From: Acidobacteriota bacterium
GTDB taxonomy: Bacteria > Acidobacteriota > Terriglobia > 20CM-2-55-15
DNA: 39,266 bases
Assembly: GCA_022821145.1 (NCBI GenBank)
Contig: JAJEEE010000078.1
Coordinates: 1-39,266 of the forward strand
Direction of reading: 5' to 3'
The position numbers and the translations under genes are program-made. Of this stretch, positions 23,405 to 36,467 are shown piece by piece (within the stretch, counting starts at the first letter, position 1; each line of letters starts with the position of its first letter). The notes below the pieces were generated by a model. The model saw nothing but the letters and a program-made list of their open reading frames with translations. It had not been told where the DNA came from and ran no database searches.

Positions 23405-24736
23405 TTACCACAATTGCCCTAAAAAACGCGCGTACGACAAGACCCTCTTATGCATCAAGCGATGGTCGTCGAACTCCCAGACGCGACCCACGTCGCCTCC
23501 CCCAACCGCCGGCCCACGGCTAACTCGCCCAAGAATCTGCTCCCACAATATCGATGACCGTACCGGCGTCGTCAATATCACATCGGTCACGTTCGGACAG
23601 TCGTATCCCGTCGCCAAAATCCGTTTGTTCACCACGACATCGACATCACCAGTCGAAAACTGTCTCAACACCTCGCGTCGTTCCACAGACGACGTAACAT
23701 TCGATACCATACCCACGCGCACACCCCGCGCCCGTATAGCGCCTGCCAACGCATAGCAGTGAGCCAGCGACCCACCGAACACTATCGTACGAGCTTCACG
23801 TCCTAACCCCGCGACCGCCTCAACCACGGACCAAAACCGATGTCGATTCAGAGCCAGTTCATCGACCGACAACGTCCGGGCGTCCAGCCTTCTCACCCTA
23901 ATGCTATCCCATTGCGCCGGCAACCCCAGCGTGTTGACCTGAAGCTTGGACAGCACGCCGCGTTTTATCAGGGCACCAACGGGATCCCCTCCAAGCTCCT
24001 TCGACGTGATCAAGGTATTTCCAAAAAGTTCCCGAAGGTCCTCCCCCTCGTCCTCCACACTGCGACCAGGCGTCGCGCTCAATCCCACAACAGCGGCGCC
24101 ACACCGCAATACATGTCGAACGATCGCCCGGAAGGTCCTCGCGACCGCTTGATGTGCCTCATCGAACACCACGACGTCCGGCCCAAACTTCTCAACTGCG
24201 GCAAGCCGTTTTGACGCCAGTTGAGCGGTGCACAAGGCAACCGTCACACTCGCTCTCCTACCGCCCCTACCAGGAACGTCGTTCACGACTACCTCCACAG
24301 CGGACGTTCCCGGAAACCGATCCCACATATCCTTAATACAGCTGACCGCCTGCTCGACCAACTCCACGGCCGGCGCAATCCATAGCACCCTCTTTACGCG
24401 GCCTCTCTCAATCAATTCCCTGCAAAACCACGTCGCCGTCCTCGTCTTTCCCGCTCCCGTTGGCAACGATACCAGCGCGCCGCCGCCTCCATTGCACGCC
24501 TCCATCCACTCGTGAAGCCTGCTCACGACTTCCCGCTGATATGAAAACAACGGAATCGCCGTCGGCAACGTCAACGTCAGTTTCTCTCGCGACTCCTCTG
24601 CACCCTCCGCCTCATCCTCATCCCCAAATCGATCGCGCCGCAAATACTCAACGGCCAGCTCACGTTCGCGAGCCGAGCCCCCTTGTCGCTCGCTGAGCGG
24701 ACCCTCGAAAAAACGCTCAAGTACTTGAGCCGCCAT
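23405..24736 (-). CDS. SF2 helicase, phosphorothioation-restriction type
   Basis: This 443-residue superfamily 2 helicase has motif Q-like LFSYQREVVSRL, Walker A LVSLPTGAGKT, Walker B VVVFDEAH, motif III GLSATPGR, motif V ILATGYDCP and motif VI QILGRVSRG. Size and architecture fit the family annotated as 'DNA phosphorothioation system restriction enzyme' (TIGR04095), helicases found with dnd/ssp genes. It has no nuclease domain of its own. It starts 6 nt after the DGQHR gene and is the last gene of the operon. In this context it probably translocates on or unwinds unmodified DNA while another subunit cuts. Confidence 0.85.
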   Translation of the reverse strand: MAAQVLERFFEGPLSERQGGSARERELAVEYLRRDRFGDEDEAEGAEESREKLTLTLPTAIPLFSYQREVVSRLHEWMEACNGGGGALVSLPTGAGKTRTATWFCRELIERGRVKRVLWIAPAVELVEQAVSCIKDMWDRFPGTSAVEVVVNDVPGRGGRRASVTVALCTAQLASKRLAAVEKFGPDVVVFDEAHQAVARTFRAIVRHVLRCGAAVVGLSATPGRSVEDEGEDLRELFGNTLITSKELGGDPVGALIKRGVLSKLQVNTLGLPAQWDSIRVRRLDARTLSVDELALNRHRFWSVVEAVAGLGREARTIVFGGSLAHCYALAGAIRARGVRVGMVSNVTSSVERREVLRQFSTGDVDVVVNKRILATGYDCPNVTDVILTTPVRSSILWEQILGRVSRGPAVGGGDVGRVWEFDDHRLMHKRVLSYARFLGQLW

Positions 24737-24742
24737 ATTTCA

Positions 24743-26764
24743 TCAACCGACTAGACTGTTCCACAACCAAGCGACCCTAGGCTTCATCACCGCCCACTTC
24801 TTGTCGTCATCCTGCGCGTCCGCCGAGTCACCGCGCATTTTGCAAATTCGCGCACCTATCGACTGCTCCGGCACGAAAAGCCGATTTAGGCATTGATCCA
24901 ATTTCAAGTCGAGGCCCGACTCCGCAGTCTCAGCGCGTTCCATCAATTTCTCGAAGTCCCCTTGGCCTAACCCCTCGATCTTGTGATAGATCCAAAAGTG
25001 TCCCACCAATAACAGTAAGTCAGAGGCCCTCACTGCCGCCCCCTGAGTGAAGTCGATCGGGCCCTGTGGATCCTGGAACGAGCACAACCAAAACCGATCG
25101 AACGTTTCGTTTTCTTCATCGCAAGGAAACTCGAATCCTGGCTCCAAAAATCCCGGTTCTTTCACAATTAACGTGTTCAAAGCTTCAACGAGCCGACTCG
25201 CCCGTTCCTCCTGAAGACTCACTACCGTACCGGCCTCCTCATCGACTTCCTCCGCCGGCGCATCGATTTCTATCGCGTCCTCATCTCCCAACACTGCGAC
25301 AATTTGTCTAGTGACCTTGGTATACGCCACGAAAGCCAGAAACAAAGCTCGGTGAAAGACTACCGCAAACGCTAACGGATACCTGTCCTTGACCTTCTCG
25401 CACTCCGTCACAGAGTTAAACAAGTCCGTTCCCGCTATCGGATTCTGCAGTCTATTGGCCAACTCATTTTCATACTTCAACAAAAGAGCCGTCGCCTTCG
25501 CCGCCCCCTTCGCGCTCTCCGCACTCGCCTTCAATGCAAACCAGTTACAAAATTCCGGCGACAACGTTCCGTACGTCGCCCGGACGTCGATCAGCTTCCG
25601 ATACGGGACCATTTGCGTCAAAAGAGTGGTAACGGGTTTCGACCATTCGGATCTAAAGCCATCCGCAATCTGCCGAAGTTCATCGACCGGCTCCTCCACG
25701 AAACTGAACGGCCGCTTATGACGATCACATTCTTTAAGACGCTGCCGCGCCATTTCTAAATCTAAACCCAAATTCTTCTCGAGCCGCCCGATCAGTCTGT
25801 CGATCTCGTCATGCGCCATGGGGTCTTCGAACGGCCTTATCGCCAATATCTTGGACACGGCCCAATCCATTCCCAAAATCGTCGCCAAGTACGGCCCATC
25901 ACCGAAAAGCGCCCGTTCCGTGTGCCAGTCCACTAACGACAACGGAAGTCGCGGGAGCGTTTCCTCCAACTCGGCCTTCCCTTCGACAAGCTGATCTCCG
26001 ATGATCGCGCGCACGCAGATCGACACCGGATCGCGATCGTCGAGCAGGATTTGTCGAGCACGACTTACTGTCTGCGCATGCTTATTCAAATCAATGAACA
26101 GACGGCGAAGCGTGTCGATCACAGACTGCCGTCCGCTCCGCGGAAACCCGAGGTCTGGATGAAGCACGATCAAGATCACCGGCACGGACGACGAGGTGCC
26201 TGCCTGCCCGAGTTCCTTAATCGCAGCAAGCCGGTGCTGCCCGTCGATCGCGACCGCACAGACTTCGTTCGTGTTCCAGCATATCTGCCCCAATCGTGCG
26301 TTGTCTTCTATTGGGTCCGACCACCCTCCCCAATAACCGCAAGTCACTGGTCCAAAACGACGCACCCGGTCTGCCGGGAAGTGCTGTTGGTTCTCAAGCT
26401 CCGGCGCATGCCATCCTTTCGACGCCGAAAAATCGCCGACGGTGTCTCCGTGAAATGGCAACAGCGCGATCGTTAGTGAGTTGAAAAAGTGGGGCTCCTC
26501 CTGCTGCTTAAGATATGGAACGATTTTTCGCTCGACGCGGCGCCAGTCGATATCGCGCTGGAATAGCTCCTCGATTCTCCAGTTCATGCTAGAGGCGCCT
26601 GGCATTTCTGTGACGAGAACAAGATACCTCGCGATGTCGTCGAAACTCATCGACACTTGAAAATATGGGACGTGGAGCTGTGAATGACTATAGCGACCGA
26701 AAATGAAGTCAAAATTCGGTGTCTTTCGAATAGTTGTTGCGGGTCGCGGTTGATCCATCATCAC
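24743..26764 (-). CDS. DGQHR/DndB-like protein
   Basis: This 673-residue protein contains the signature AIDGQHRLAAIKEL near residue 175, the DGQHR motif shared by DndB, SspE-type DUF262 proteins and ParB-like folds. Upstream is YFQVSMSFDDIARYLVLV; the C-terminal ~300 residues are helical and acidic and have no recognised domain. DndB proteins bind DNA and regulate dnd loci or help discriminate modified DNA; the extra length here suggests an added interaction module. Base composition is visibly lower in GC than the left arm of the window. Gaps of 6 nt on both sides tie it to the GIY-YIG and helicase genes. Confidence 0.82.
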   Translation of the reverse strand: MMMDQPRPATTIRKTPNFDFIFGRYSHSQLHVPYFQVSMSFDDIARYLVLVTEMPGASSMNWRIEELFQRDIDWRRVERKIVPYLKQQEEPHFFNSLTIALLPFHGDTVGDFSASKGWHAPELENQQHFPADRVRRFGPVTCGYWGGWSDPIEDNARLGQICWNTNEVCAVAIDGQHRLAAIKELGQAGTSSSVPVILIVLHPDLGFPRSGRQSVIDTLRRLFIDLNKHAQTVSRARQILLDDRDPVSICVRAIIGDQLVEGKAELEETLPRLPLSLVDWHTERALFGDGPYLATILGMDWAVSKILAIRPFEDPMAHDEIDRLIGRLEKNLGLDLEMARQRLKECDRHKRPFSFVEEPVDELRQIADGFRSEWSKPVTTLLTQMVPYRKLIDVRATYGTLSPEFCNWFALKASAESAKGAAKATALLLKYENELANRLQNPIAGTDLFNSVTECEKVKDRYPLAFAVVFHRALFLAFVAYTKVTRQIVAVLGDEDAIEIDAPAEEVDEEAGTVVSLQEERASRLVEALNTLIVKEPGFLEPGFEFPCDEENETFDRFWLCSFQDPQGPIDFTQGAAVRASDLLLLVGHFWIYHKIEGLGQGDFEKLMERAETAESGLDLKLDQCLNRLFVPEQSIGARICKMRGDSADAQDDDKKWAVMKPRVAWLWNSLVG

Positions 26765-26770
26765 ACTCCT

Positions 26771-27379
26771 TCACCCCGGACGTTCCGTCCCGAATGGGGC
26801 GAGAACTCTCTGCGTTATCAGCTCCAACAACTCCAGAAGGACGCGACTCTCATCGGACAAACTCGCCGACTCCGAGACCTGCAAATAACGCAGGTCGAGA
26901 TCTTCCCACGCCAATGCAAGTGTGTCACGAACGTATGAATATAGTTGAGTATCGCCCTTCAGGTGCTGGCCCACGCGTGCCCGCAGGTCGCCGGTTTGCC
27001 CAACATAGATCGGCGGAGTGAACTGCGAAAGTCCCTCTACGTATCGCACGAACAGCTTCCGGCGGTCGGCCCGGCGTACCGCTTCGTCAAGGGTCCGCGC
27101 CTTTTCGGGAGTCAATCCCCCGCCGCCCAACTGCAAGCCGTCGGTCCACACGCAGTGGGTCAACTGCTTACGTTTTATACGCGCAGCCGGCTGTTCCACG
27201 ACCTCGTTGATCCACTCCTCGCACGCATCGGCGCTAGAAATAGATCGCTCCGGTGCGACGATCCGACGGCGCCATAGATACAAAGCCGGCGTGCTCGGAA
27301 GTAGTTCGTGGAGCGCGCGGTTCTCGGCCACGTCGAGTAGTTCACCCCCAGAAACAGACTTCCATCGGAATCGTGACAT
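26771..27379 (-). CDS. GIY-YIG nuclease-domain protein
   Basis: This 202-residue protein carries PIYVGQTGDLRARVGQHLKG, the second half of a GIY-YIG nuclease with the catalytic Arg. An earlier PALYLWRRRI at residues 31-40 is a candidate for the GIY strand, about 95 residues away, which is longer than usual and implies an insertion. The Glu-rich LLELLELITQRVLAPFG fits the catalytic Glu helix. GIY-YIG enzymes make single-strand or staggered cuts with a divalent metal. It is the first gene of a three-gene operon with the DGQHR protein and helicase, so it probably supplies the cutting activity. Confidence 0.75.
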   Translation of the reverse strand: MSRFRWKSVSGGELLDVAENRALHELLPSTPALYLWRRRIVAPERSISSADACEEWINEVVEQPAARIKRKQLTHCVWTDGLQLGGGGLTPEKARTLDEAVRRADRRKLFVRYVEGLSQFTPPIYVGQTGDLRARVGQHLKGDTQLYSYVRDTLALAWEDLDLRYLQVSESASLSDESRVLLELLELITQRVLAPFGTERPG

Positions 27380-27667
27380 GGCTTAAGGCGCTAGCGGCCG
27401 ACCAGGTGCCGGGGTCCCGTCCAACGTGCTAAACTCACCGTACCTATTTTGGCAGAACACAAACGAATTCTTCAACAGGCTGTCGCAGGCTGCGGAATGC
27501 GCACGTCGCCAACTGTGTGTCGTTCCTTTTATCGATTGCCGTCCAACGTCTGTCTCCCAATAGCGGGGACGATAGGGCTCGGCTTCTCAGTTCTGCCGAA
27601 ACGCGCTTCTACACATGCGCAGTCATGGCCTGGAAGCCTGCGCGATACGTCGCTGGTCGACGCCCCT
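27380..27667 (-). promoter_or_regulatory. Intergenic gap separating modification and effector genes
   Basis: This 288-nt gap between the sspD-like and GIY-YIG genes holds no protein gene. On the minus strand, TTGAAG (complement of 27470-27475) with CAAAAT 18 nt downstream is a possible promoter for the effector operon. It is the only sizeable break in the defence island, so separate control of the two halves is likely. Confidence 0.4.
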
Positions 27668-28456
27668 CTATAAGTCACAGACAATACATGCGCGTTGCTC
27701 GGGATTGTCGTCGGCATCTGCGAAAGTCTCGAAAAGCGTCTCGTTCGATCGGTTTTTGGTCGGAGGGGATTGCTCGCGCGCGATCACTTCGTCCGATCGC
27801 TTTGCGAGCTGTTCCAGAGTCTCGCCCTGCGACCAAGTGTAACTACGTCGCGTTTCAGGGTCGTATTTTTCGTACTGTGCCGCTTTCTCGAACAGGTCAG
27901 GATGCCTTTGCTTCAGTCCCACCCACTCGATCTTTCTCTGAAAAAAACAAAAGTAACAGCCGGATCGGCTCCGCCACTGGTAATACTCTGGAAGGCCTAA
28001 TCCGGACTCATCCAATATGCGAAAAACGTCGTCTCGCGTCATTCCCTTCTCTTTGAACGGGTACACGGGCTTGATATTGTGATTCGAGGAGATGTAACCC
28101 TCGCGGTTTTCGTCAGCTCTAATCCCTATGTAGGAATAGACGATGTCGTCCCCGACGTATCGCTCGAACGGAATGATCTTGAGCATGCGCGTGCACCAGC
28201 GAGCCTGCGGCGATGGCAAATAGCCGCCATACATCTCAAGCCAGTGATCGAAGTCCAGATCGGAATTCAGTACGACAATCTTCTTCCCCAGGTAGGCTTC
28301 TATTTTTTGCAGGTACTCGTACGTCTCCTTCAACTCCTTGCCCGTGTCGCAAAACACGTATTCCATCTCGGGAATCCGGTCGCGCATGTAGATGGCCAAC
28401 GCGGTGCTGTCCTTGCCACCGGAAAGACTCAAGATGTGCCGTACCTTCTCGGTCAT
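27668..28456 (-). CDS. sspD: SspD/DndC-like phosphorothioation sulfurtransferase
   Basis: This 262-residue PAPS-reductase-family ATP pyrophosphatase has the PP-loop SLSGGKDSTALA at residues 10-21. It is Cys-rich: RWCTRMLK, RSGCYFCFFQRK and the C-terminal ACIVCDL, consistent with a 4Fe-4S cluster as in DndC. These enzymes activate DNA phosphate with ATP and transfer sulfur to the backbone. DndC is longer; size and neighbours (DUF4007 and a large ATPase) favour the SspD role in single-strand phosphorothioation. Its ATG overlaps the stop of the ATPase gene (ATGA, 28453-28456), so the two are translationally coupled. Confidence 0.82.
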   Translation of the reverse strand: MTEKVRHILSLSGGKDSTALAIYMRDRIPEMEYVFCDTGKELKETYEYLQKIEAYLGKKIVVLNSDLDFDHWLEMYGGYLPSPQARWCTRMLKIIPFERYVGDDIVYSYIGIRADENREGYISSNHNIKPVYPFKEKGMTRDDVFRILDESGLGLPEYYQWRSRSGCYFCFFQRKIEWVGLKQRHPDLFEKAAQYEKYDPETRRSYTWSQGETLEQLAKRSDEVIAREQSPPTKNRSNETLFETFADADDNPEQRACIVCDL

Positions 28457-31400
28457 AGGTCCTCCATCAACAGCTCGAGGATAGCGCGCTTCTTCTGTTC
28501 AGCCGACAACGAAACACGAGTCACGTTGTTGTATAGCCGCTTCTTGAGTCGCTTCGCGCTGCCGTTGAGTTCCACGTGCTGGAGAATCTGTTCATGCTGG
28601 CGTCCACGCACGGAGTCCACGAGGACACGATCATATCCGGACCAGTCCTCGGAGTCAGCCGTTCGCGTCAGAACTTCCTTCAGGGATTGTGCGTCCCGGA
28701 TCTTCTGAGCGAGCTGGGACATTCCGAGCACGAATTCCTTTTCGTCGTCATCGCGCCAGAATGCGGGCGGTGTGCCGCGAATCACCGATGACACCGACTC
28801 GACCCACTCCCGCTCGGGTTGATCCACGTCGGCGGCACGGAGCAGGAATGCCTTGAGCTGTGTCTCGTTCGTGACGCCGTACAACTGCTCCTGCAGTGAT
28901 TTGAACGACTTCCTCAGACCAGCAGTGCCGACAACCAGCCCCAAGCGAGCCTTGATCTCGTCGACGAGACGCGCCAGCAACTCCGGATAGGCGCGGTTGA
29001 CTTCGGACAGCGCCTTCGTCAGTCCGGATACGAATTTGCGGTCGTTCGTGCTGATTCTCGTGGCGCTCCCGTCCGCGGCAATGGGTTGGCAACCCAAAGC
29101 GTTGGGCAGGTCCTCGAATATCAGTTGCTCGGGCGCTTTCGCCGCCATCAAACGCCGGCGGACCTCGATCGTCGTCTCTGAAAGCTGTTGGGTCTTCAAC
29201 GCGAACGCCGGAAGACCATGCATCCAGCGATAGACGGCTCTCAGAACGGACTCGAAGGCGTCGCCCACCTCTACGCCAAGACTCTTCTCGAGTTCTTTGG
29301 AGAGCTTGGACATCACCAGCGCTCGACGCCCGGTCAGCGCGATGTATCGGAAGAAGAAACGGTCGGGGCTCTTCAGGAGCTTCTCGACGACTTCCGGTGA
29401 CCATTCGCGGATGAACATTGTCCCGTCGTACAGGGCCACGGAATGCCGCCGGCTCGCGAACACGACGAACATGAGGATGGGGATGACGCCTGAACGGAGC
29501 CCGTACGGCGGAGCGGACAGGACATCGACGACGTCCGAAATCTGCCGCGGGGAATCCACCGCGGATTCCAATATCTTCTCGATCTCCCGCCAAGTCGCGT
29601 TCAGCCCGGAATTCTTTCGTGTGGGCGCCTTGTAGGTCCACGCGTCCGCGTCGCCTCGAACGTGGATTCCAGTCGACCGGAGGACGCCGCGGTAGATGGC
29701 CATCTCCGGCGGGAACCCTTCGATACCGAGGTTCTCCTTGTCGCCGTTCTGCAAGATACACTGGATCAGCCGCTTGCGCGCCGTCACGATCGTTCCGCTG
29801 AGATGATTCCGGCTGATCATCTCGTTCCGAATGACCGGCGTCTTCGGATACGCTTGGTCGCAAGCCGTGGACACCAAGCGGTTGGCCTCTGCCGCGCTGC
29901 GCGGCTGATGCTCCTCGCCAGCGCTGAGATGCCAGGTGGAGCCGGCCCGGTTCGGATCCGACAGGCCGCCGACGATGCCCCGGAAATGCGCCTCGGCGAT
30001 CGCGAGTCGTTCCGACAACTCGCGCTGCGCCACCGCGTCGTCGCGAAGCTCGCCACTTTTGTCCAACACGTTCTGAATCGCAACGAAGTCCAGCAATGCC
30101 TCCGAGAACGGCAACGGGCGCTTCGGGAGAACGCAGATGACGGCCGAGTTCCAATTCGACACGGCGATTTTCCGGCACGCCTCGAGCTCCTCGCTCGTCC
30201 GACACAGGACGTAACAGATGAGCCCGTCGGCGGCATGGCCCGCATCGAGGATCCAATTCTTGAAGGCGAGTTCCTTCAACTCGGCGACCGACATGTACCG
30301 GCCCTGATAGAACCGCGTGATGCCGTATTTGTGGCTGTGGCGGCGCGCCACCGTCGCGGCGGCCGGGTATTGCCGACCCAGATAGTCGGCGGCGTCGAAA
30401 TTCGCTTGGAGCGATTCTTTCTCCGCGTCGACCCGGGCGTCGACGTCGAAATCGCTTCCTTCCCACACGCGATACTCGTTGGCGAATCGGCGGAAGACGA
30501 GGATCTTCGCGCCCACCAATTCGTCGAGACATTCGCGCAGTTCCCCGCGGCCGTCCGGGCCGACGTTCAATGCGAACGCCAACATTTCCTCCGACGCGGC
30601 CAGGAGCGTCGGAAGGCCGACCAGGTTGAGCAGGCCGATCGTCTTGACGACTCTATAGGCGAGATCCGGTCGATCGCCCAGCCGGCCCAACGCCGTGTCG
30701 ATTTCGATGTACCGGCGGCCGGCGATTCCCGCGTTGGCGTCTTGCCGCAGTGAGCCGACGAAGTAGTCGTACAGCCGGTCCGCCGTCAGGTAGGGAATGT
30801 CTCCCGGGTTCCAGCGCTTCGCCGTCAGGTAGTCCTTCAGCCCGTAGGGCTCGGTCGAACACAGAAACGTGTAGATGCTGCGCTCGTTCTGCGCGGCGCG
30901 TCCGGACAATCGGGGCAGCAGGTAAATCGTCAGCGGATGGAGCGGGTAGCAACGCTCGAACAGCGTCTGCCAATAGCCCGTGTCGCCCAGCTTGCTGAAG
31001 GCCGGGTGCTCCAATGCCGACGCCGCCGCTCGTGCCGAGGAATCTCGGATCAGGCGTCCGATATCGTCCCCGCCGATGCTCCGAAGGCAATCGGCCATGG
31101 CCCGAAAAGACGCAGTGGGGTCGGCCGTGAAGTCGAATTCCCGGAAACGCCCCTGGATTTTCTCCCATTCCCGCGTCTGGTGCCGGGGCAGACCGCTCAC
31201 GTAGCGATCGAAGTTCTGATGCGCCAGCAGCCACAAGTGAAGCTGCGGCGCTTCGGCACGGGCGGCCAGCTCTGCCAGGCTCTGCAAGACGAACAGGTCC
31301 GTGGCGCCGCCCGTCATCGCGGCGTTCTCGAGATACTTCCCGAACTCGTCAATGGCGATGATCAGGCCGCTGGACTTCCGGCCGGCGTCGGCGAGGGCGT

Positions 31401-31968
31401 CCTGGAACACTTCGACCACATCCCCGGCGCGAACATCGTCTTCGAAGTCAAGCAGCCGCTTGAGCTTGGCCTGCGTCGGTCGCCGCGCCCACCCCTTCGT
31501 TCCCGTGTCGCCGGACATCGCGCGACGCAGGCCATGGAGCAGGCCGCGTTCGATGGAGCCCCTCTGGCCGTGAACCAGAACGGGTACGTACGACTTGCCG
31601 GCCTGGACGATACCGTCGTCGAGTCGAGCCTCGACCTCAGGCGACTCGGCCTGGAGCCGTTCGCGGCAACGCCGCATCCACGGATCGTCCCAACCCTTGC
31701 TGAACCCGATGGTGGCGAAGAGAGCGAATATGGACTTGCCGGAACCGTACGGCGCGACGACGAACCAGGCCCGGTCCCTGGCTTTCGGTTCCGTGCTGTC
31801 GATCCAGTGCTCCAGCAGCGTGTAGCTCTTGGGACCGAACGTATAGGTCGGAACGTCCGCCGTGTCGGCGATGTCGAAGGATGGATTCACCGATCGGACG
31901 AAACGGCTCTCCACGTCGAAATACGCGGAAAGAGGGCGGTTCATCGATACGACGTTCGACTTAGGCAC
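28453..31968 (-). CDS. sspC: Large P-loop ATPase, SspC-like
   Basis: This 1171-residue protein has Walker A VVAPYGSGKSIF at about residues 70-81 and Walker B SGLIIAIDEFGKYL near 200, followed by a sensor-like LHLWLLAHQNFDRYV. The long remainder is helical, with no nuclease motif seen. The layout resembles BrxC/PglY-type DNA-associated ATPases. Its position between DUF4007 and the PAPS-reductase gene identifies it as the probable SspC subunit, which powers access of the sulfur-transfer machinery to DNA. It overlaps the upstream DUF4007 gene by 8 nt and the downstream sspD-like gene by 4 nt, the tightest coupling in the window. Confidence 0.75.
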   Translation of the reverse strand: MPKSNVVSMNRPLSAYFDVESRFVRSVNPSFDIADTADVPTYTFGPKSYTLLEHWIDSTEPKARDRAWFVVAPYGSGKSIFALFATIGFSKGWDDPWMRRCRERLQAESPEVEARLDDGIVQAGKSYVPVLVHGQRGSIERGLLHGLRRAMSGDTGTKGWARRPTQAKLKRLLDFEDDVRAGDVVEVFQDALADAGRKSSGLIIAIDEFGKYLENAAMTGGATDLFVLQSLAELAARAEAPQLHLWLLAHQNFDRYVSGLPRHQTREWEKIQGRFREFDFTADPTASFRAMADCLRSIGGDDIGRLIRDSSARAAASALEHPAFSKLGDTGYWQTLFERCYPLHPLTIYLLPRLSGRAAQNERSIYTFLCSTEPYGLKDYLTAKRWNPGDIPYLTADRLYDYFVGSLRQDANAGIAGRRYIEIDTALGRLGDRPDLAYRVVKTIGLLNLVGLPTLLAASEEMLAFALNVGPDGRGELRECLDELVGAKILVFRRFANEYRVWEGSDFDVDARVDAEKESLQANFDAADYLGRQYPAAATVARRHSHKYGITRFYQGRYMSVAELKELAFKNWILDAGHAADGLICYVLCRTSEELEACRKIAVSNWNSAVICVLPKRPLPFSEALLDFVAIQNVLDKSGELRDDAVAQRELSERLAIAEAHFRGIVGGLSDPNRAGSTWHLSAGEEHQPRSAAEANRLVSTACDQAYPKTPVIRNEMISRNHLSGTIVTARKRLIQCILQNGDKENLGIEGFPPEMAIYRGVLRSTGIHVRGDADAWTYKAPTRKNSGLNATWREIEKILESAVDSPRQISDVVDVLSAPPYGLRSGVIPILMFVVFASRRHSVALYDGTMFIREWSPEVVEKLLKSPDRFFFRYIALTGRRALVMSKLSKELEKSLGVEVGDAFESVLRAVYRWMHGLPAFALKTQQLSETTIEVRRRLMAAKAPEQLIFEDLPNALGCQPIAADGSATRISTNDRKFVSGLTKALSEVNRAYPELLARLVDEIKARLGLVVGTAGLRKSFKSLQEQLYGVTNETQLKAFLLRAADVDQPEREWVESVSSVIRGTPPAFWRDDDEKEFVLGMSQLAQKIRDAQSLKEVLTRTADSEDWSGYDRVLVDSVRGRQHEQILQHVELNGSAKRLKKRLYNNVTRVSLSAEQKKRAILELLMEDL

Positions 31969-32914
31969 CGTAGAACCCCCTCAGGATGTTGTCGGCCGTG
32001 GTGTTTCCGAGGTGCACCTGGACCAACCCCGCGGTTCGCGTGAGGCGGACAGCGTGGCGTCCCCCTTCCGCTTCCAGACGTTCCAACGTTGCGAACAACG
32101 ACTCGTTGTCCAATCCGAAGAGCCGTCCGGGGCTCCCTTCACCCCAACGGATCGCGTCGAACGGGAGGAGATCCGAGCCGCCTCTGGCGTTCTCCGCGAA
32201 ACGATATATTCCGTACGCAACGATCGCGTCCGGCAGGTTCGGCTTGGGCCCGACCACGAACCGGAAGAAGCTGTTTCCGGCCAGCCGATCCACGAGGCCC
32301 AGCGCGGCCAGCGGACAATCCAGGCTGTCTTCGGCCGGGATCTTGTCGGATCGGCTCGACGGCGCGTACGTCCGGACGAAACACGAGAAATCACGCTCCA
32401 GCGACTTCCGGGGCGCGTCGACGCCCTCCTGTGCCAGGAATCGCTCGAATTGGAGCAGAAAGACGTCACGCTGAAACTCGCCCTGGCCGAAGCAGTTGAA
32501 CGCCCAGAACCACGTCGTCGCCCGCGAATAGTTCGTCGCCAGATGGGCGTGGGCGATCCAGAGCGATGCGTCTTCTTCAAAGTACGGATCGCGGTCGCGG
32601 AGAAGTTCCGCCAAGGGGGTCAGCTTGAACGCCTGGCGTTTCCGGTCCGGGCGATACTGCGGCGAAATCTCCTCGATCAGACCCGCGGCCACCAACCAGT
32701 GGCGGATGGCGGAAACCATGTTGCGACCCACGCCGAGTATGTCGATCGCCTCGGTCCTGCCGAAGACGTCGGGGTGCTCGGCCACGGCCTCCATGCCCTT
32801 GATCAGCCAGCCGTCGCGGATATGGAAGGACTCGTGGCGCCCAAAACTCGTTTGGGTTGAAGCTCTTGGCCATGCGTCCGGCCGGGCGTTCGATATGCTT
32901 GCCGTCGCGATCAT
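31961..32914 (-). CDS. sspB: DUF4007 protein, SspB-like
   Basis: This 317-residue protein opens with FGRHESFHIRDGWLIKGMEA, followed by VGRNMVSAIRHWLVAAGLIE (a helix-turn-helix-like segment) and LWIAHAHLATNYSRATTWFW, all characteristic of DUF4007. SspB of single-strand phosphorothioation systems belongs to this group, to my knowledge, and acts as a DNA nickase that opens the backbone for sulfur insertion. ATG at 32914 has an AGGGG-type site 6 nt upstream. It is the first gene of the three overlapping modification genes; the methyltransferase gene ends 113 nt upstream. Confidence 0.8.
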   Translation of the reverse strand: MIATASISNARPDAWPRASTQTSFGRHESFHIRDGWLIKGMEAVAEHPDVFGRTEAIDILGVGRNMVSAIRHWLVAAGLIEEISPQYRPDRKRQAFKLTPLAELLRDRDPYFEEDASLWIAHAHLATNYSRATTWFWAFNCFGQGEFQRDVFLLQFERFLAQEGVDAPRKSLERDFSCFVRTYAPSSRSDKIPAEDSLDCPLAALGLVDRLAGNSFFRFVVGPKPNLPDAIVAYGIYRFAENARGGSDLLPFDAIRWGEGSPGRLFGLDNESLFATLERLEAEGGRHAVRLTRTAGLVQVHLGNTTADNILRGFYGA

Positions 32915-33027
32915 GCAAGACCCCTCGAAGGGCCGGAAAAGGCAACCGTGATTATCGTTCCCCTGCAGGACAGGTCAGGTCCGGGGCCAAGCACGGGTGC
33001 GTCCGAATGCGGACCCTTGATTATCAA

Positions 33028-34479
33028 TCACTTACCGCCGTCGGCCCGGCGCGTCAGCCGATGCCCGGCGAGCGTTACGCCGGCCTGAGACAGCGTCTCC
33101 TCCCACTGCTTGCGACATCCGATCCCGTCCCGGGACAGCAACCCGAGCTTCTCTTCCCTCTCGGTCAGCGCGCGGAACTTCTCGAACCCCGGGTAGTCGC
33201 CGAGCACCAGCGTCTCCTTGCGATGCAGAATCGGCGGATTCAACGAATCCGAGTAGTCCCGGATTCCGTAATCGGTCGTCGGAAGTTGAGCCCGGACGCT
33301 GTTCCGCAACGCGGGATGCGCGTCCTCGTCGAAACGATCGTACGTCAGGAAGGCGACCTTCCGGCCGTCCCACCACAACTTCAAGACGTTGTAGCCCGTG
33401 TCGCCGACGATCTGCTTCCCGGCGAACACGACCAGCCGCAACAGGGGCGGCAACGCGTCTTCCGCCGATCGGTGGATGTAGAGCGTGTCGTTGACGCGCT
33501 TTCCGGTCGGCGCCTGATCGAAGGCCTCACCGATCACGTCGGGTTGGCCGATCTTGAACAGAAAGGCGTCCGCGGCCTCCAATGCCGAACCGTACTTGCC
33601 CCAGATCGCGCGGATGTCGGCGTAAACGCCGCCCGGCAGCGTGTTGGCGGGCGGCGGCCGCAACCCCTGCAACCGCAGCATCGACAGGTACGTCAAAATG
33701 TCCTCACGCTTCTGATCCTGTGACTGGATGAGGCGCTCGGGATCGATCTGCCCGAGCGTCAGACGCTCGATGCGCTGCGGCGAGCCGAAGCGCTCGAGAA
33801 GCTTCGCATAACTCGAGAACTCCTCCTTCAACGGCGGCCGCCCGAGCTCGACCGCGAGCTTGACGTAACGCCGGGCGATTCGGTCCCGGGCGAACTGGTT
33901 GATCAGCTCCGCGCGGTACTCGACCCGGAGAAGGAGGGCCTGGTTGGCGATATAGGCCGATTCCGCCGCGTCGTCGGCAAACACGTAAACGACGCCCAAC
34001 GTGGCCGGATAGGCGCGGCGGCCGAGCGTCGCCTCCACGTACTCTCGGAACTCGGCCTGGCTGAAGATCTTCTGGAACGTGCCGCGGCTGGTCATCTGGC
34101 CGTCGTTGAAGTCGGTGGCTCGAGCCGGGGTTCGGTCCACGCGAACGGAGACGATCAGGAGCTGTCGCGCCAACGAAAAGGCCTTCTTCAGAGTGGCGCG
34201 GCGTTCCGCCGGGTCTTCGATCACGTTCAAGACGAACCCGAGATTGACGACCTCGGCTTCCTGAAAGGGCTCCTCCGGCGCGAACGCGGGGTCCCAACCG
34301 GACACGCGGATCCCTTCCTTCTTCAGGTATTCGACGTCTTCGCCGTGACCGCACCCGTAGTCGAATACCGAGCGCTGCGTGTCGATCAGCCCTTGGGCGA
34401 TGGCCAGAGCAACCGGCCGGGAACACCGATAGCGGCGAATGGCCGTTTGAGAACGATCGATCTGCGGTTCGGATGTCAT
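33028..34479 (-). CDS. Phosphorothioation-associated putative methyltransferase
   Basis: This 483-residue protein has a class I methyltransferase fold in its N-terminal half: motif I VFDYGCGHGEDVEYL, an acidic turn GWDPAF, and NLGFVLNVIEDPAERR. The second half (LFKIGQPDVIGEAFDQAP, GRKVAFLTYDRFDEDAHPAL) is specific to the family annotated as DNA phosphorothioation-associated putative methyltransferase (TIGR04096). No DPPY-type base-amino motif is evident, so its target is unclear. It is the first gene of the minus-strand island and diverges from the gene at 34602, with a 122-nt shared promoter region. Confidence 0.87.
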   Translation of the reverse strand: MTSEPQIDRSQTAIRRYRCSRPVALAIAQGLIDTQRSVFDYGCGHGEDVEYLKKEGIRVSGWDPAFAPEEPFQEAEVVNLGFVLNVIEDPAERRATLKKAFSLARQLLIVSVRVDRTPARATDFNDGQMTSRGTFQKIFSQAEFREYVEATLGRRAYPATLGVVYVFADDAAESAYIANQALLLRVEYRAELINQFARDRIARRYVKLAVELGRPPLKEEFSSYAKLLERFGSPQRIERLTLGQIDPERLIQSQDQKREDILTYLSMLRLQGLRPPPANTLPGGVYADIRAIWGKYGSALEAADAFLFKIGQPDVIGEAFDQAPTGKRVNDTLYIHRSAEDALPPLLRLVVFAGKQIVGDTGYNVLKLWWDGRKVAFLTYDRFDEDAHPALRNSVRAQLPTTDYGIRDYSDSLNPPILHRKETLVLGDYPGFEKFRALTEREEKLGLLSRDGIGCRKQWEETLSQAGVTLAGHRLTRRADGGK

Positions 34480-35561: not shown

Positions 35562-36467
35562 TCAACTCAATAGATGGTCGACTCGCCATCTCAGCGCTTC
35601 CGGCGACGGATGAAACTTCGGATGACCGTGAAATATCACGGACTGGCCCTCCAAACTAACGAACGGCTGATAGTCCGATATGCGCTTGTCCAATTTCCTA
35701 GACACTCTCCATTTCATGTCCGGGCCTGGCGCGATCAGGTGCCGGTCCATGGCCCGGTGATAGGTCGGCGCGAGGGCGATTCCGTTGCAGGGCCGATCGT
35801 CGCGCGTTTCGGTGAAGGGAATCAGATGCGCCGCGTCCACCAACGGGCCGACGTCGGGCAAGACGATTCGCGAACCGGTCGCGGCGCAACGATAGTCATA
35901 AGCTTGAAGTACCAACCGTCGGAAGCTTTGCCTGCGCGCCGTGTCGTCAGGTCGGGGAGAGTCGGCATCTGTCGTCTCGTTCGTGCGCAACCGGCTTTCG
36001 TACTCGTTCGCCTCGTGTCTCGCTTGTATGACCGCCTCGACCTCCGCGCGACGTTCTCCGAGCCAGCGGCCGATCAGCACGTCCCGCATTACTCGCCTGG
36101 CTTCCACGTTGGTCGTCATGTCTACGTAAAGCCCCTCGGCTAGCCTCGCAGATCTTCCCAACATCGATCGATGGCGGGGTTTACGACCTTCGTCGCTCTC
36201 GTCCGGCTTGGGACAGAGATGCCAAAATCCTTCACCCCGAAGGTGATAGAACGGGAAATATGGGTGAAGTGGCTCCCCAGGTCGCGCCGCTTCCGAATAA
36301 TCGCGAAACACATCCAACGTGTCCTCGTACCGGATTTCGTTTCGCGACAGAACGCCGCGTTCCGCCAAGTCGATGACGGCAAGAAGCATGCACGGCTTGT
36401 GCACGCTCGGCGGCCCATGGGCCCGGTCGACCTTCAACTTCTCGAACTGTTCCAGATAGTGTGTCAC
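35562..36467 (-). CDS. HNH endonuclease with sulfur-binding-like N-terminal domain
   Basis: This 301-residue protein has a C-terminal HNH_2-type domain: LVLQAYDYRCAATGSRI, LVDAAHLIPFTETRDD and CNGIALAPTYHRAMDRHLI supply the His, Asn and His of the betabetaalpha-metal site. The N-terminal ~95 residues contain SVHKPCMLLAVIDLAERG and PYFPFYHLRGEGFWHL. These resemble the 'HKPLLLL...' and 'YPFWxLxxDGxW' motifs of the ScoMcrA-type sulfur-binding domain, which recognises phosphorothioate DNA; the expected Tyr before Pro is Phe. If so, it is a type IV-like enzyme cutting sulfur-modified DNA. Many relatives with this N-domain are not tested, so substrate remains uncertain. Confidence 0.75.
   Translation of the reverse strand: MTHYLEQFEKLKVDRAHGPPSVHKPCMLLAVIDLAERGVLSRNEIRYEDTLDVFRDYSEAARPGEPLHPYFPFYHLRGEGFWHLCPKPDESDEGRKPRHRSMLGRSARLAEGLYVDMTTNVEARRVMRDVLIGRWLGERRAEVEAVIQARHEANEYESRLRTNETTDADSPRPDDTARRQSFRRLVLQAYDYRCAATGSRIVLPDVGPLVDAAHLIPFTETRDDRPCNGIALAPTYHRAMDRHLIAPGPDMKWRVSRKLDKRISDYQPFVSLEGQSVIFHGHPKFHPSPEALRWRVDHLLS

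What the first reader, a model, noticed from the sequence alone, without database searches (positions are those of the whole stretch)
23405..34479. Ssp-type phosphorothioation module joined to a GIY-YIG / DGQHR / helicase effector module
Six defence genes lie on one strand in two coupled blocks: DUF4007-ATPase-PAPS reductase (overlaps of 8 and 4 nt) and GIY-YIG-DGQHR-helicase (6-nt gaps), preceded by a phosphorothioation-associated methyltransferase. The first block fits SspBCD, and the second occupies the place where sspFGH is reported beside sspBCD. I cannot confirm that these three are SspF, SspG and SspH. The combination implies that sulfur-marked self DNA is spared while a motor-nuclease complex attacks unmodified DNA. 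The absence of sspE and of dndD/dndE sets it apart from classical Dnd loci.
Basis: partly seen in the sequence, partly recalled or inferred. Interest (0 to 1): 0.85.

Follow-up and report, generated by a model that had tools for sequence, protein, structure and literature searches.

The report
Sulfur-DNA defence with unnamed effector cassette
A bacterium, probably an acidobacterium, carries a known set of genes that mark its own DNA with sulfur, next to a small, undescribed set of DNA-attacking genes (a GIY-YIG nuclease, a DGQHR switch protein and a helicase) whose first two members recur beside the same sulfur-marking genes in bacteria of several phyla.

Summary
The genes are there as described. 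Block 1 is a genuine SspBCD phosphorothioation (PT) module: SspB matches the solved SspB, and SspD is not an assimilatory reductase. Block 2 is not SspFGH: a real SspFGH scores 727-2300 bits on PADLOC's models, the window's proteins show no hit. It is another cassette: a small GIY-YIG nuclease with five invariant active-site-type residues, a ParB/Srx-fold DGQHR protein and an SF2 helicase. Of 80 SspD loci scanned, 20 carry this GIY-YIG gene, in all 20 directly upstream of a DGQHR gene; 5 continue into the helicase. One Acidobacteriota MAG contig carries the window's set (SspBCD, methyltransferase, GIY-YIG, DGQHR, short helicase); a second, cut inside sspC, matches from there on. GIY-YIG and DGQHR co-diverge (r 0.74) and follow SspD more loosely (0.28-0.32). 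Most likely mechanism: a split SspE/DndI, in which a PT-sensing DGQHR NTPase gates a separate GIY-YIG nuclease helped by a motor. The mechanism and the direction of PT control are inferred, not tested. Nothing I saw in ten literature searches describes the pair.

The parts
35562..36467 (-). SBD-HNH: sulfur-binding domain plus HNH nuclease (301 aa), possible additional PT-reading nuclease
   Evidence: residues 3-93 match SBDHga1 (PDB 8h0l, E 1.5e-13); HNH_2 31 bits; NF045808 75.4 bits, below its 180 cut-off; relatives within about 4 kb of SspB or SspD in other genomes
33028..34479 (-). PT-associated putative methyltransferase (TIGR04096), 483 aa
   Evidence: 435.8 bits vs cut-off 150; relatives (150 bits or more on my own profile) in 15 of 80 SspD loci
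31961..32914 (-). SspB (DUF4007), target-recognising nickase subunit (function from the literature)
   Evidence: PF13182 257.7 bits; PADLOC SspB 238.6; PDB SspB 6juf/6lb9 E 2.6e-29
28453..31968 (-). SspC, BrxC-like ATPase
   Evidence: PADLOC SspC 857.6 bits over residues 19-1095; GIVQAGKS at 119 and LIIAIDEFG near 205
27668..28456 (-). SspD, PP-loop sulfurtransferase-type protein
   Evidence: PADLOC SspD 378 bits; SGGKDS at 12; mostly 55-64% identical to the 80 best SspD relatives
27380..27667 (-). 288-nt gap between modification block and effector cassette
   Evidence: sequence; no promoter- or terminator-like site on this strand in it, one weak terminator-like site on the + strand at 27499-27520
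26771..27379 (-). small GIY-YIG nuclease (202 aa), first gene of the effector cassette
   Evidence: Y34, Y125, G127, R135, E186 invariant in 20 of 20 aligned; the model's ten best VIA rows are GIY-YIG entries (one recalled to be), Z 4.6-7.2, next row 3.2
24743..26764 (-). DGQHR / DndB-superfamily protein (673 aa), ParB/Srx-type N-terminal domain plus long helical C-terminal part
   Evidence: TIGR03187 66.5 bits; Q69, DGQHR 174-178, F223 and N227 invariant and R70 at 90% or more in 20 aligned; two best VIA rows are ParB N-domains, Z 6.3 and 6.2 over residues 28-231
23405..24736 (-). short SF2 helicase (443 aa)
   Evidence: ResIII 71, Helicase_C 42.5 bits; GAGKT, DEAH, SATPGR, QILGRVSRG intact; on one side of a branch (98/92) with the helicases of L079, L080 and L087, but on a long branch of its own

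Best explanation
This is a PT-based (Ssp-type) anti-phage locus with an effector cassette that is neither SspE nor SspFGH. Supported by data here: sspBCD are intact ORFs of the right families, which would install PT using sulfur from a desulfurase encoded elsewhere; GIY-YIG and DGQHR form a tightly linked gene pair that appears to be exchanged between SspBCD loci as a unit; in the window's lineage an SF2 helicase follows. Inferred: the DGQHR protein is a ParB/Srx-fold NTPase like the N-terminal domain of SspE, DndI and GmrS, and reads the PT mark; it controls the separate GIY-YIG nuclease, so the pair works like SspE or DndI cut into two polypeptides, with GIY-YIG in place of HNH; the SF2 helicase is the motor that moves the nuclease along, or opens, DNA. 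PT on the host's own DNA changes NTP hydrolysis by the DGQHR subunit and so keeps the nuclease off self DNA, while unmarked phage DNA is cut or its replication stopped. I lean slightly to DndI-like release from marked DNA over SspE-like licensing, but have no evidence that separates them. The SBD-HNH gene upstream is possibly a second, independent PT reader.
For: SspBCD identity. Not SspFGH, with a positive control. GIY-YIG directly upstream of DGQHR in 20 of 20 GIY-bearing loci among 80. SspD-MTase-GIY-DGQHR-short helicase in L079 and L080 (L079's contig starts inside sspC), SspBCD-GIY-DGQHR-helicase in L087. Five invariant residues and GIY-YIG fold. QR / DGQHR / FxxxN motifs, by which DGQHR was linked to GmrS/DUF262 (PMC4619093, passages); ParB fold. 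SspE and DndI: DUF262 with DGQQR, whose Arg is needed for NTP hydrolysis and for full defence, fused to an HNH nickase (PMC13251355 and PMC11662687, passages); GmrS and GmrD occur split or fused, a precedent. The pair co-diverges, r 0.74, against 0.32 and 0.28 with SspD, over 25 loci. Purifying selection: dN/dS 0.19 (GIY) and 0.17 (helicase) between L079 and L080. The five strongest GIY hits in 396 same-phylum genomes, own included, all lie within 6 kb of an SspD hit; two of the five (the window, and the contig of L089) are themselves in the profile.
Against: No experiment. GIY-YIG scores below Pfam's cut-off and Foldseek gave no hit under E 0.001 for either model; the folds rest on modest VIA Z-scores, of a size that the tool says may be common. 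DndB in Dnd systems is described as a regulator, so the DGQHR protein could be one. DGQHR also occurs beside SspBCD with no GIY gene detected: L147 among the 80, and L008, L061 and L075 outside them. The helicase is present in only 7 of the 20 loci with the pair, contiguous in 5, so the pair does not need it. PT-sensing residues were not identified in the DGQHR protein. The window's GIY-YIG is only 16-34% identical to the 19 relatives aligned.
Confidence: 0.55

Rival explanations
1. The GIY-YIG/DGQHR pair is not an effector but a DndB-like regulator or editor of PT (setting how much DNA is marked, or removing marked stretches), and the helicase or the SBD-HNH protein is the restriction part.
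For: DGQHR belongs to the DndB superfamily (PF14072), and DndB is described as an ATP-dependent negative regulator that limits PT (PMC10853773, passages). In several loci the pair coexists with a helicase-GHKL(-PLD) module (L059, L068, L069, L070, L106, L131, L155, L157), so the pair may not be the effector there. DGQHR without a detected GIY gene occurs in L008, L061, L075 and L147.
Against: TIGR03233 (DndB proper) is failed by a wide margin (24.4 vs 328). The five GIY-YIG active-site-type positions are kept in 20 of 20, which a pure regulator would not need. In L082, L118, L119, L140 and L156 the pair is the only one of the surveyed effector-type genes seen near SspBCD within the stretch held.
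Confidence: 0.25
2. The cassette is the eroded remnant of a larger helicase-GHKL-PLD system: the window kept the helicase and lost the GHKL ATPase and PLD nuclease, so block 2 is decaying.
For: 15 of 18 helicase-bearing loci among 80 also carry the GHKL gene; cyanobacterial loci run GIY-DGQHR-helicase-GHKL-PLD-desulfurase. No GHKL is found in the window or in the genome, while the same profile finds it in G168 and G307, whose own sequences are among its seeds. The window's helicase lies on a long branch.
Against: The window's helicase groups with those of L079, L080 and L087 (98/92); L079 and L087 show no GHKL, with 4.5 and 5.7 kb of sequence after the helicase (L080 ends 14 bases after it and says nothing). 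Motifs are intact, and dN/dS between L079 and L080 is low. This looks like an old, maintained GHKL-less lineage.
Confidence: 0.08
3. Independent neighbours in a defence island: SspBCD works with the SBD-HNH nuclease (or with unlinked DUF262 proteins), and GIY-DGQHR-helicase is a separate system that does not read PT.
For: The effector block has lower GC3 (0.64-0.66) than SspB, SspC and the MTase (0.80-0.84) and is set off by a 288-nt gap; the genome has two unlinked DUF262 proteins.
Against: In the window SspD itself has GC3 0.68, so the drop does not mark the cassette alone. The pair recurs beside SspBCD in six phyla by record title. At least 6 of the 8 plasmids hit by the DGQHR protein also carry SspD, which is found on 66 of 72,556 plasmids (6 SspD records were not listed). 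The GIY family's five best hits in 396 genomes are beside SspD.
Confidence: 0.1

Closest known systems
SspABCD-SspE (PT-sensing DUF262-HNH effector)
   Same: SspBCD modification module; effector built on a ParB/Srx-type DGQxR domain plus a nuclease
   Different: Here the DGQHR protein and the nuclease are separate genes, the nuclease is GIY-YIG and not HNH, and a helicase follows
SspABCD-SspFGH (PMC8092258)
   Same: three-gene block beside SspBCD including a motor protein
   Different: no SspF, SspG or SspH hit; SF2 helicase instead of FtsK-type SspH; no Walker A in the first gene
DndI (PMC11662687)
   Same: DGQxR NTPase controlling a nuclease in a PT system; suggested mode of sparing self DNA
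   Different: single DUF262-HNH chain, paired with DndBCDE and double-strand PT
GmrSD type IV restriction enzymes (PMC4619093)
   Same: ParB/Srx DGQxR subunit plus nuclease subunit, found split or fused
   Different: HNH nuclease; targets glucosylated hydroxymethylcytosine; no PT module
DndCDEA-PbeABCD (PMC6459918)
   Same: SF2/ResIII helicase in a PT defence operon (window helicase 80 bits to PADLOC PbeA)
   Different: PbeA has a PLD domain; no counterpart of PbeB, PbeC (SMC-like) or PbeD was seen here
GIY-YIG (URI) nucleases noted at the edges of Dnd loci (PMC10853773)
   Same: GIY-YIG gene in a PT locus
   Different: described there as tending to lie at the boundaries, sometimes on the opposite strand, as suicide effectors in Dnd loci; here it is the upstream partner of a DGQHR gene in Ssp loci

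Membership tests
SspBCD modification module | SspB (DUF4007), SspC and SspD homologs in one operon | tested here: met
   PADLOC 238.6, 857.6 and 378 bits; SspB vs PDB SspB E 2.6e-29; overlaps of 8 and 4 nt
SspBCD modification module | SspD distinct from assimilatory PAPS reductase | tested here: met
   by score: TIGR00434 CysH 22.9 bits vs 165.1 cut-off; SspD 378 bits
SspBCD modification module | cysteine desulfurase SspA, adjacent or replaced by IscS elsewhere | tested here: inconclusive
   no match in the window to one SspA-type query (best E 0.11); 11 PF00266 matches in the genome, best 303.6 and 300.2 bits, function not tested
SspBCD modification module | phosphorothioate in host DNA | not testable with these tools
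   needs LC-MS/MS
SspFGH | homologs of SspF, SspG, SspH | tested here: not met
   no PADLOC SspF/G/H hit shown for the window's 8 proteins at E 0.001 (4 weakest of the helicase's 29 hits not printed); positive control L159 scores 817, 727, 2300 bits
SspFGH | Walker A in SspF; FtsK/SpoIIIE-like region in SspH | tested here: not met
   no Walker A pattern in GIY or DGQHR; third gene is SF2/ResIII
SspE | DUF262 and HNH (DUF1524) in one chain | tested here: not met
   PF03235 has no match in the window; two elsewhere in the genome
DGQHR domain (TIGR03187/PF14072) | profile match; QR, DGQHR, FxxxN motifs; ParB/Srx fold | tested here: met
   66.5 vs 58.85 and 47.1 vs 29.1 bits; motifs; ParB N-domains Z 6.3/6.2, a modest Z
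DndB (TIGR03233) | equivalog score | tested here: not met
   24.4 vs 328 bits
GIY-YIG nuclease superfamily | Pfam PF01541 score | tested here: not met
   17.4 vs 22.6 bits
GIY-YIG nuclease superfamily | conserved Tyr, Tyr-x-Gly, Arg, Glu and fold | tested here: met
   invariant in 20 of 20; ten best VIA rows are GIY-YIG (the first, a plant Grx N-domain, is recalled to be), Z 4.6-7.2; Foldseek ranks 1 and 4 are GIY-YIG but at E 0.49 and 1.0
TIGR04095 (PT system restriction enzyme) | equivalog score | tested here: not met
   58.1 vs 600 bits
PbeABCD | PLD-helicase PbeA plus PbeC SMC-like ATPase | tested here: not met
   best PbeA stretch covers the helicase only (residues 40-243); no PLD domain hit in the helicase; PbeC was not searched for
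Type 4 BREX | PglZ and BrxL with BrxC/BrxP | not tested
   not searched for directly; neither was seen among the window proteins scanned

The most novel reading that the evidence does not exclude
The GIY-YIG/DGQHR pair is a new class of two-subunit, PT-gated nuclease, the functional counterpart of SspE with sensor and blade on separate chains, spread over several phyla, and it supplies the missing restriction partner for many of the SspBCD loci that have neither SspE nor SspFGH; in Acidobacteriota it has recruited a dedicated helicase.
Probability: 0.5. Interest if true: 0.75.

Novelty: new variant of a known kind. Interest (0 to 1): 0.62.

Why it matters
Wang et al. 2021 (PMC8092258, part of the text read) found sspFGH in 196, sspE in 199 and both in 36 additional of 2,678 sspBCD-bearing genomes, so the restriction partner of most PT-marking loci was unknown by their search. 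A conserved, self-contained GIY-YIG/DGQHR pair in 20 of 80 SspD loci sampled here (not a random sample) is a direct candidate that can be tested with point mutants. If right, it shows that the PT-sensing switch is modular: one ParB/Srx sensor can be joined to HNH in the same chain (SspE, DndI) or drive a separate GIY-YIG nuclease.

Tried and rejected
SspFGH: rejected by profile search with a positive control. Assimilatory CysH for SspD: rejected by score. TIGR04095 and PbeA for the helicase: partial matches only. Decayed remnant: considered, disfavoured. GHKL, PLD and desulfurase pieces in the window: none convincing (best E 0.078). A first genome-contig scan with the DGQHR protein alone found no relative. 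The DGQHR profile against PDB sequences gave nothing useful. Foldseek alone gave no match under E 0.001 for either model; SspE, DndI and DndB were not among the rows, which shows nothing either way. Single-sequence tblastn with the GIY-YIG protein found nothing on plasmids, although the small genes of Trichormus and Geminocystis are linked to it by direct comparison (blastp E 2.9e-4 and 0.024 in a small set). Phage search of the DGQHR protein: one weak partial hit. The SspH hit in the host genome covers only positions 1465-1764 of 1766, in a 1064-aa frame, and none of my 14 profiles hits the 16 kb taken there; I read it as an ordinary FtsK. The absence of SspF from the genome had no control and is not used. 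Literature: ten searches, open-licence PMC papers only; sspBCD + GIY-YIG gave 0 papers, phosphorothioation + GHKL 0. Apart from one section of PMC10853773 and two of five parts of PMC8092258, papers were seen as passages, outlines or listings.

Cut-offs: 200 bits helicase, 150 GHKL, MTase and desulfurase, 100 PLD, 60 HNH, E 1e-4 for GIY and DGQHR; adjacency means same strand, DGQHR starting from 60 nt before to 300 nt after the GIY stop. The distance correlation used 25 loci that I listed by hand; L085 and L144, which also have the pair, were left off, as was L010 (same contig as L089). Shuffles reached none of the three correlations in 5000, so SspD also tracks the pair to some degree. In one search dS for DGQHR was saturated, and L079's GIY was read from an internal start codon of my choice. 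GC3 for SspD of L079 and SspC of L087 are from over-long ORFs and are not used.
Full report
Observation. The window is contig 20 of a 4.18-Mb genome in 89 contigs, 99.3% complete. Its phylum is probably Acidobacteriota, by inference: G148, listed as the same phylum, has a 13,979-bp contig with the same arrangement and ORF lengths as L089, from an Acidobacteria MAG contig of the same length. No tRNA or tmRNA, and no Rfam match at gathering score, was found in the window.

Modification block. SspB, SspC and SspD each give a near full-length PADLOC match of 239, 858 and 378 bits. SspB matches the solved SspB at E 2.6e-29. SspD has the PP-loop motif SGGKDS, is mostly 55-64% identical to its 80 best relatives and fails the CysH model. 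No desulfurase was found in the window with one query; the genome has several class-V aminotransferase proteins, and IscS is known to stand in for SspA (PMC8092258). The upstream gene is a clear TIGR04096 methyltransferase (435.8 bits). Its role is unknown, but relatives occur in 15 of the 80 surveyed SspD loci and beside the host's own dnd genes.

The effector block is not SspFGH. I checked this with a control: an Agrobacterium SspFGH next to SspBCD scores 817, 727 and 2300 bits on the SspF, SspG and SspH models, while no such hit is shown for the window's eight proteins. The published description of SspF (Walker A) and SspH (FtsK-like) does not fit either.

What the block is. The small first gene belongs to a GIY-YIG-type family of its own: among 20 aligned members only five columns are fully invariant, and they are the Tyr, Tyr-x-Gly, Arg and Glu expected of a GIY-YIG active site (that these are the catalytic residues is recalled). 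The predicted model (mean pLDDT 81) has GIY-YIG entries as its ten best VIA rows (Z 4.6-7.2; the next, unrelated row is 3.2; the first row's family is recalled), although Foldseek alone was inconclusive. Of 80 loci, 20 carry this gene and in all 20 a DGQHR gene follows at once; 21 carry DGQHR. By record title the 20 are Acidobacteriota, Poribacteria, Planctomycetota, Pseudomonadota, Actinomycetota and Cyanobacteriota. Of the 15 strong SspD loci in the same-phylum sample, the window included, 5 have the pair and 2 more have DGQHR with no GIY gene detected. In 396 same-phylum genomes the five strongest GIY hits (E 6e-8 or better) all lie within 6 kb of an SspD hit; two of these five are in the profile itself; the remaining hits, at E 1e-6 or worse, lie mostly in long frames of UvrC size.

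The DGQHR protein passes TIGR03187 and PF14072 but fails the DndB equivalog. It carries the QR pair, the DGQHR pentapeptide and FxxxN, which earlier work used to join DGQHR proteins to the DUF262 domain of GmrS (PMC4619093, passages). Its model's only two rows above Z 5 are ParB N-domains (mean pLDDT 73.7). SspE and DndI use a DUF262/ParB domain with DGQQR to sense PT and hydrolyse NTP, and thereby control an HNH nickase on the same chain.

The helicase. Five of the 20 pair-bearing loci continue directly into the same SF2 helicase family (L079, L080, L087, L155, L157). The family is tied to Ssp: of 18 plasmids hit at E 1e-20, at least 10 carry SspD, against 66 of 72,556 plasmids overall. Of 18 helicase loci among the 80, 15 also have a GHKL ATPase gene; PLD passes the cut-off in only 4 of 80, though it follows GHKL in eight of the plasmid loci, nearly all of those with the helicase. 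The window shows neither GHKL nor PLD, and GHKL is not found in its genome by a profile that finds it in two genomes whose sequences seed it. The window's helicase lies with those of L079, L080 and L087 on one side of a well-supported branch (98/92; its own branch is long), so the GHKL-less form looks like an established lineage. L080 carries the window's gene set, with the methyltransferase placed between SspD and GIY; L079 shows the same from the end of sspC on, where its contig starts.

Mobility. GIY and DGQHR distances correlate at 0.74 over 25 loci, against 0.32 and 0.28 with SspD (0 of 5000 permutations reached any of the three). Between L079 and L080, SspD is 97.8% identical with dS 0.16 and the methyltransferase 86.5% with dS 0.37, while GIY, DGQHR and helicase are 66-71% identical with dS above 1.2 where measurable: the modification genes and the cassette have different histories, or recombination has homogenised SspD. 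dN/dS of 0.17-0.19 shows that the cassette genes are maintained. Third-position GC of the cassette (0.64-0.66 in the window) is lower than that of SspB, SspC and the methyltransferase (0.80-0.84), and the same holds against the neighbouring Ssp or methyltransferase genes in L079, L080 and L087; but in the window SspD (0.68) and the SBD-HNH gene (0.69) are low too, so this sign is weaker than it looks.

A further part. The gene at 35562-36467 begins with a sulfur-binding domain (SBDHga1, E 1.5e-13) and ends in HNH. Relatives at 60 bits or more occur in 11 of 80 loci, above all Poribacteria (one is a 127-aa fragment, one scores only 64 bits). A published survey expected such PT-cutting enzymes to avoid PT-marking loci and found under 3.6% near dnd genes (PMC7461809, passages); another paper reports related HNH proteins inside many Dnd loci (PMC10853773, section read). 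The linkage to SspBCD suggests a regulated, SspE-like use; that is inference.

Mechanism and verdict. I propose a split SspE/DndI: DGQHR NTPase as PT sensor, GIY-YIG as nuclease, SF2 helicase as motor. Identity of the parts is well supported; the pairing of GIY with DGQHR is strongly supported by synteny and co-divergence; the PT-gated action and its direction are inference. In what I saw of the ten literature searches no paper describes the pair; the nearest is a remark that GIY-YIG (URI) genes tend to lie at the boundaries of Dnd loci (PMC10853773). It is a new variant of a known kind of system.

Noticed in passing
window 35562-36467 (-); L060, L086, L087, L103, L110, L122, L128, L136, L149, L154: Sulfur-binding-domain HNH nuclease genes lie near SspBCD, mostly in Poribacteria, also in Planctomycetota and the window's phylum, contrary to one published expectation for PT-dependent restriction enzymes near dnd genes.
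   Followed up: partly
L011 (G000:C4:40000-52588): The same genome has a dndBCDE locus with its own TIGR04096-like methyltransferase, so two PT-marking systems may coexist.
   Followed up: partly
L088, L098, L100, L102, L105, L106, L114, L121, L126, L131, L137, L146, L150, L155, L157; also L059, L066, L068-L075: Helicase plus GHKL ATPase, in some loci with a PLD nuclease, is a second recurrent SspBCD-linked module (15 of 80 loci), of which two literature searches showed no description.
   Followed up: partly
L116: One Poribacteria locus carries two GIY-DGQHR pairs of different subfamilies downstream of the same SspD.
   Followed up: no
L060 4073-8534: An operon with two long DGQHR genes flanking one GIY-YIG gene after SspBCD and a desulfurase.
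   Followed up: no
L162 (G000:C73) and L163 (G000:C25): Two unlinked DUF262 proteins in the host genome, one beside a long gene that looks like a DNA methyltransferase (by eye, not scanned), possibly separate defence systems.
   Followed up: partly
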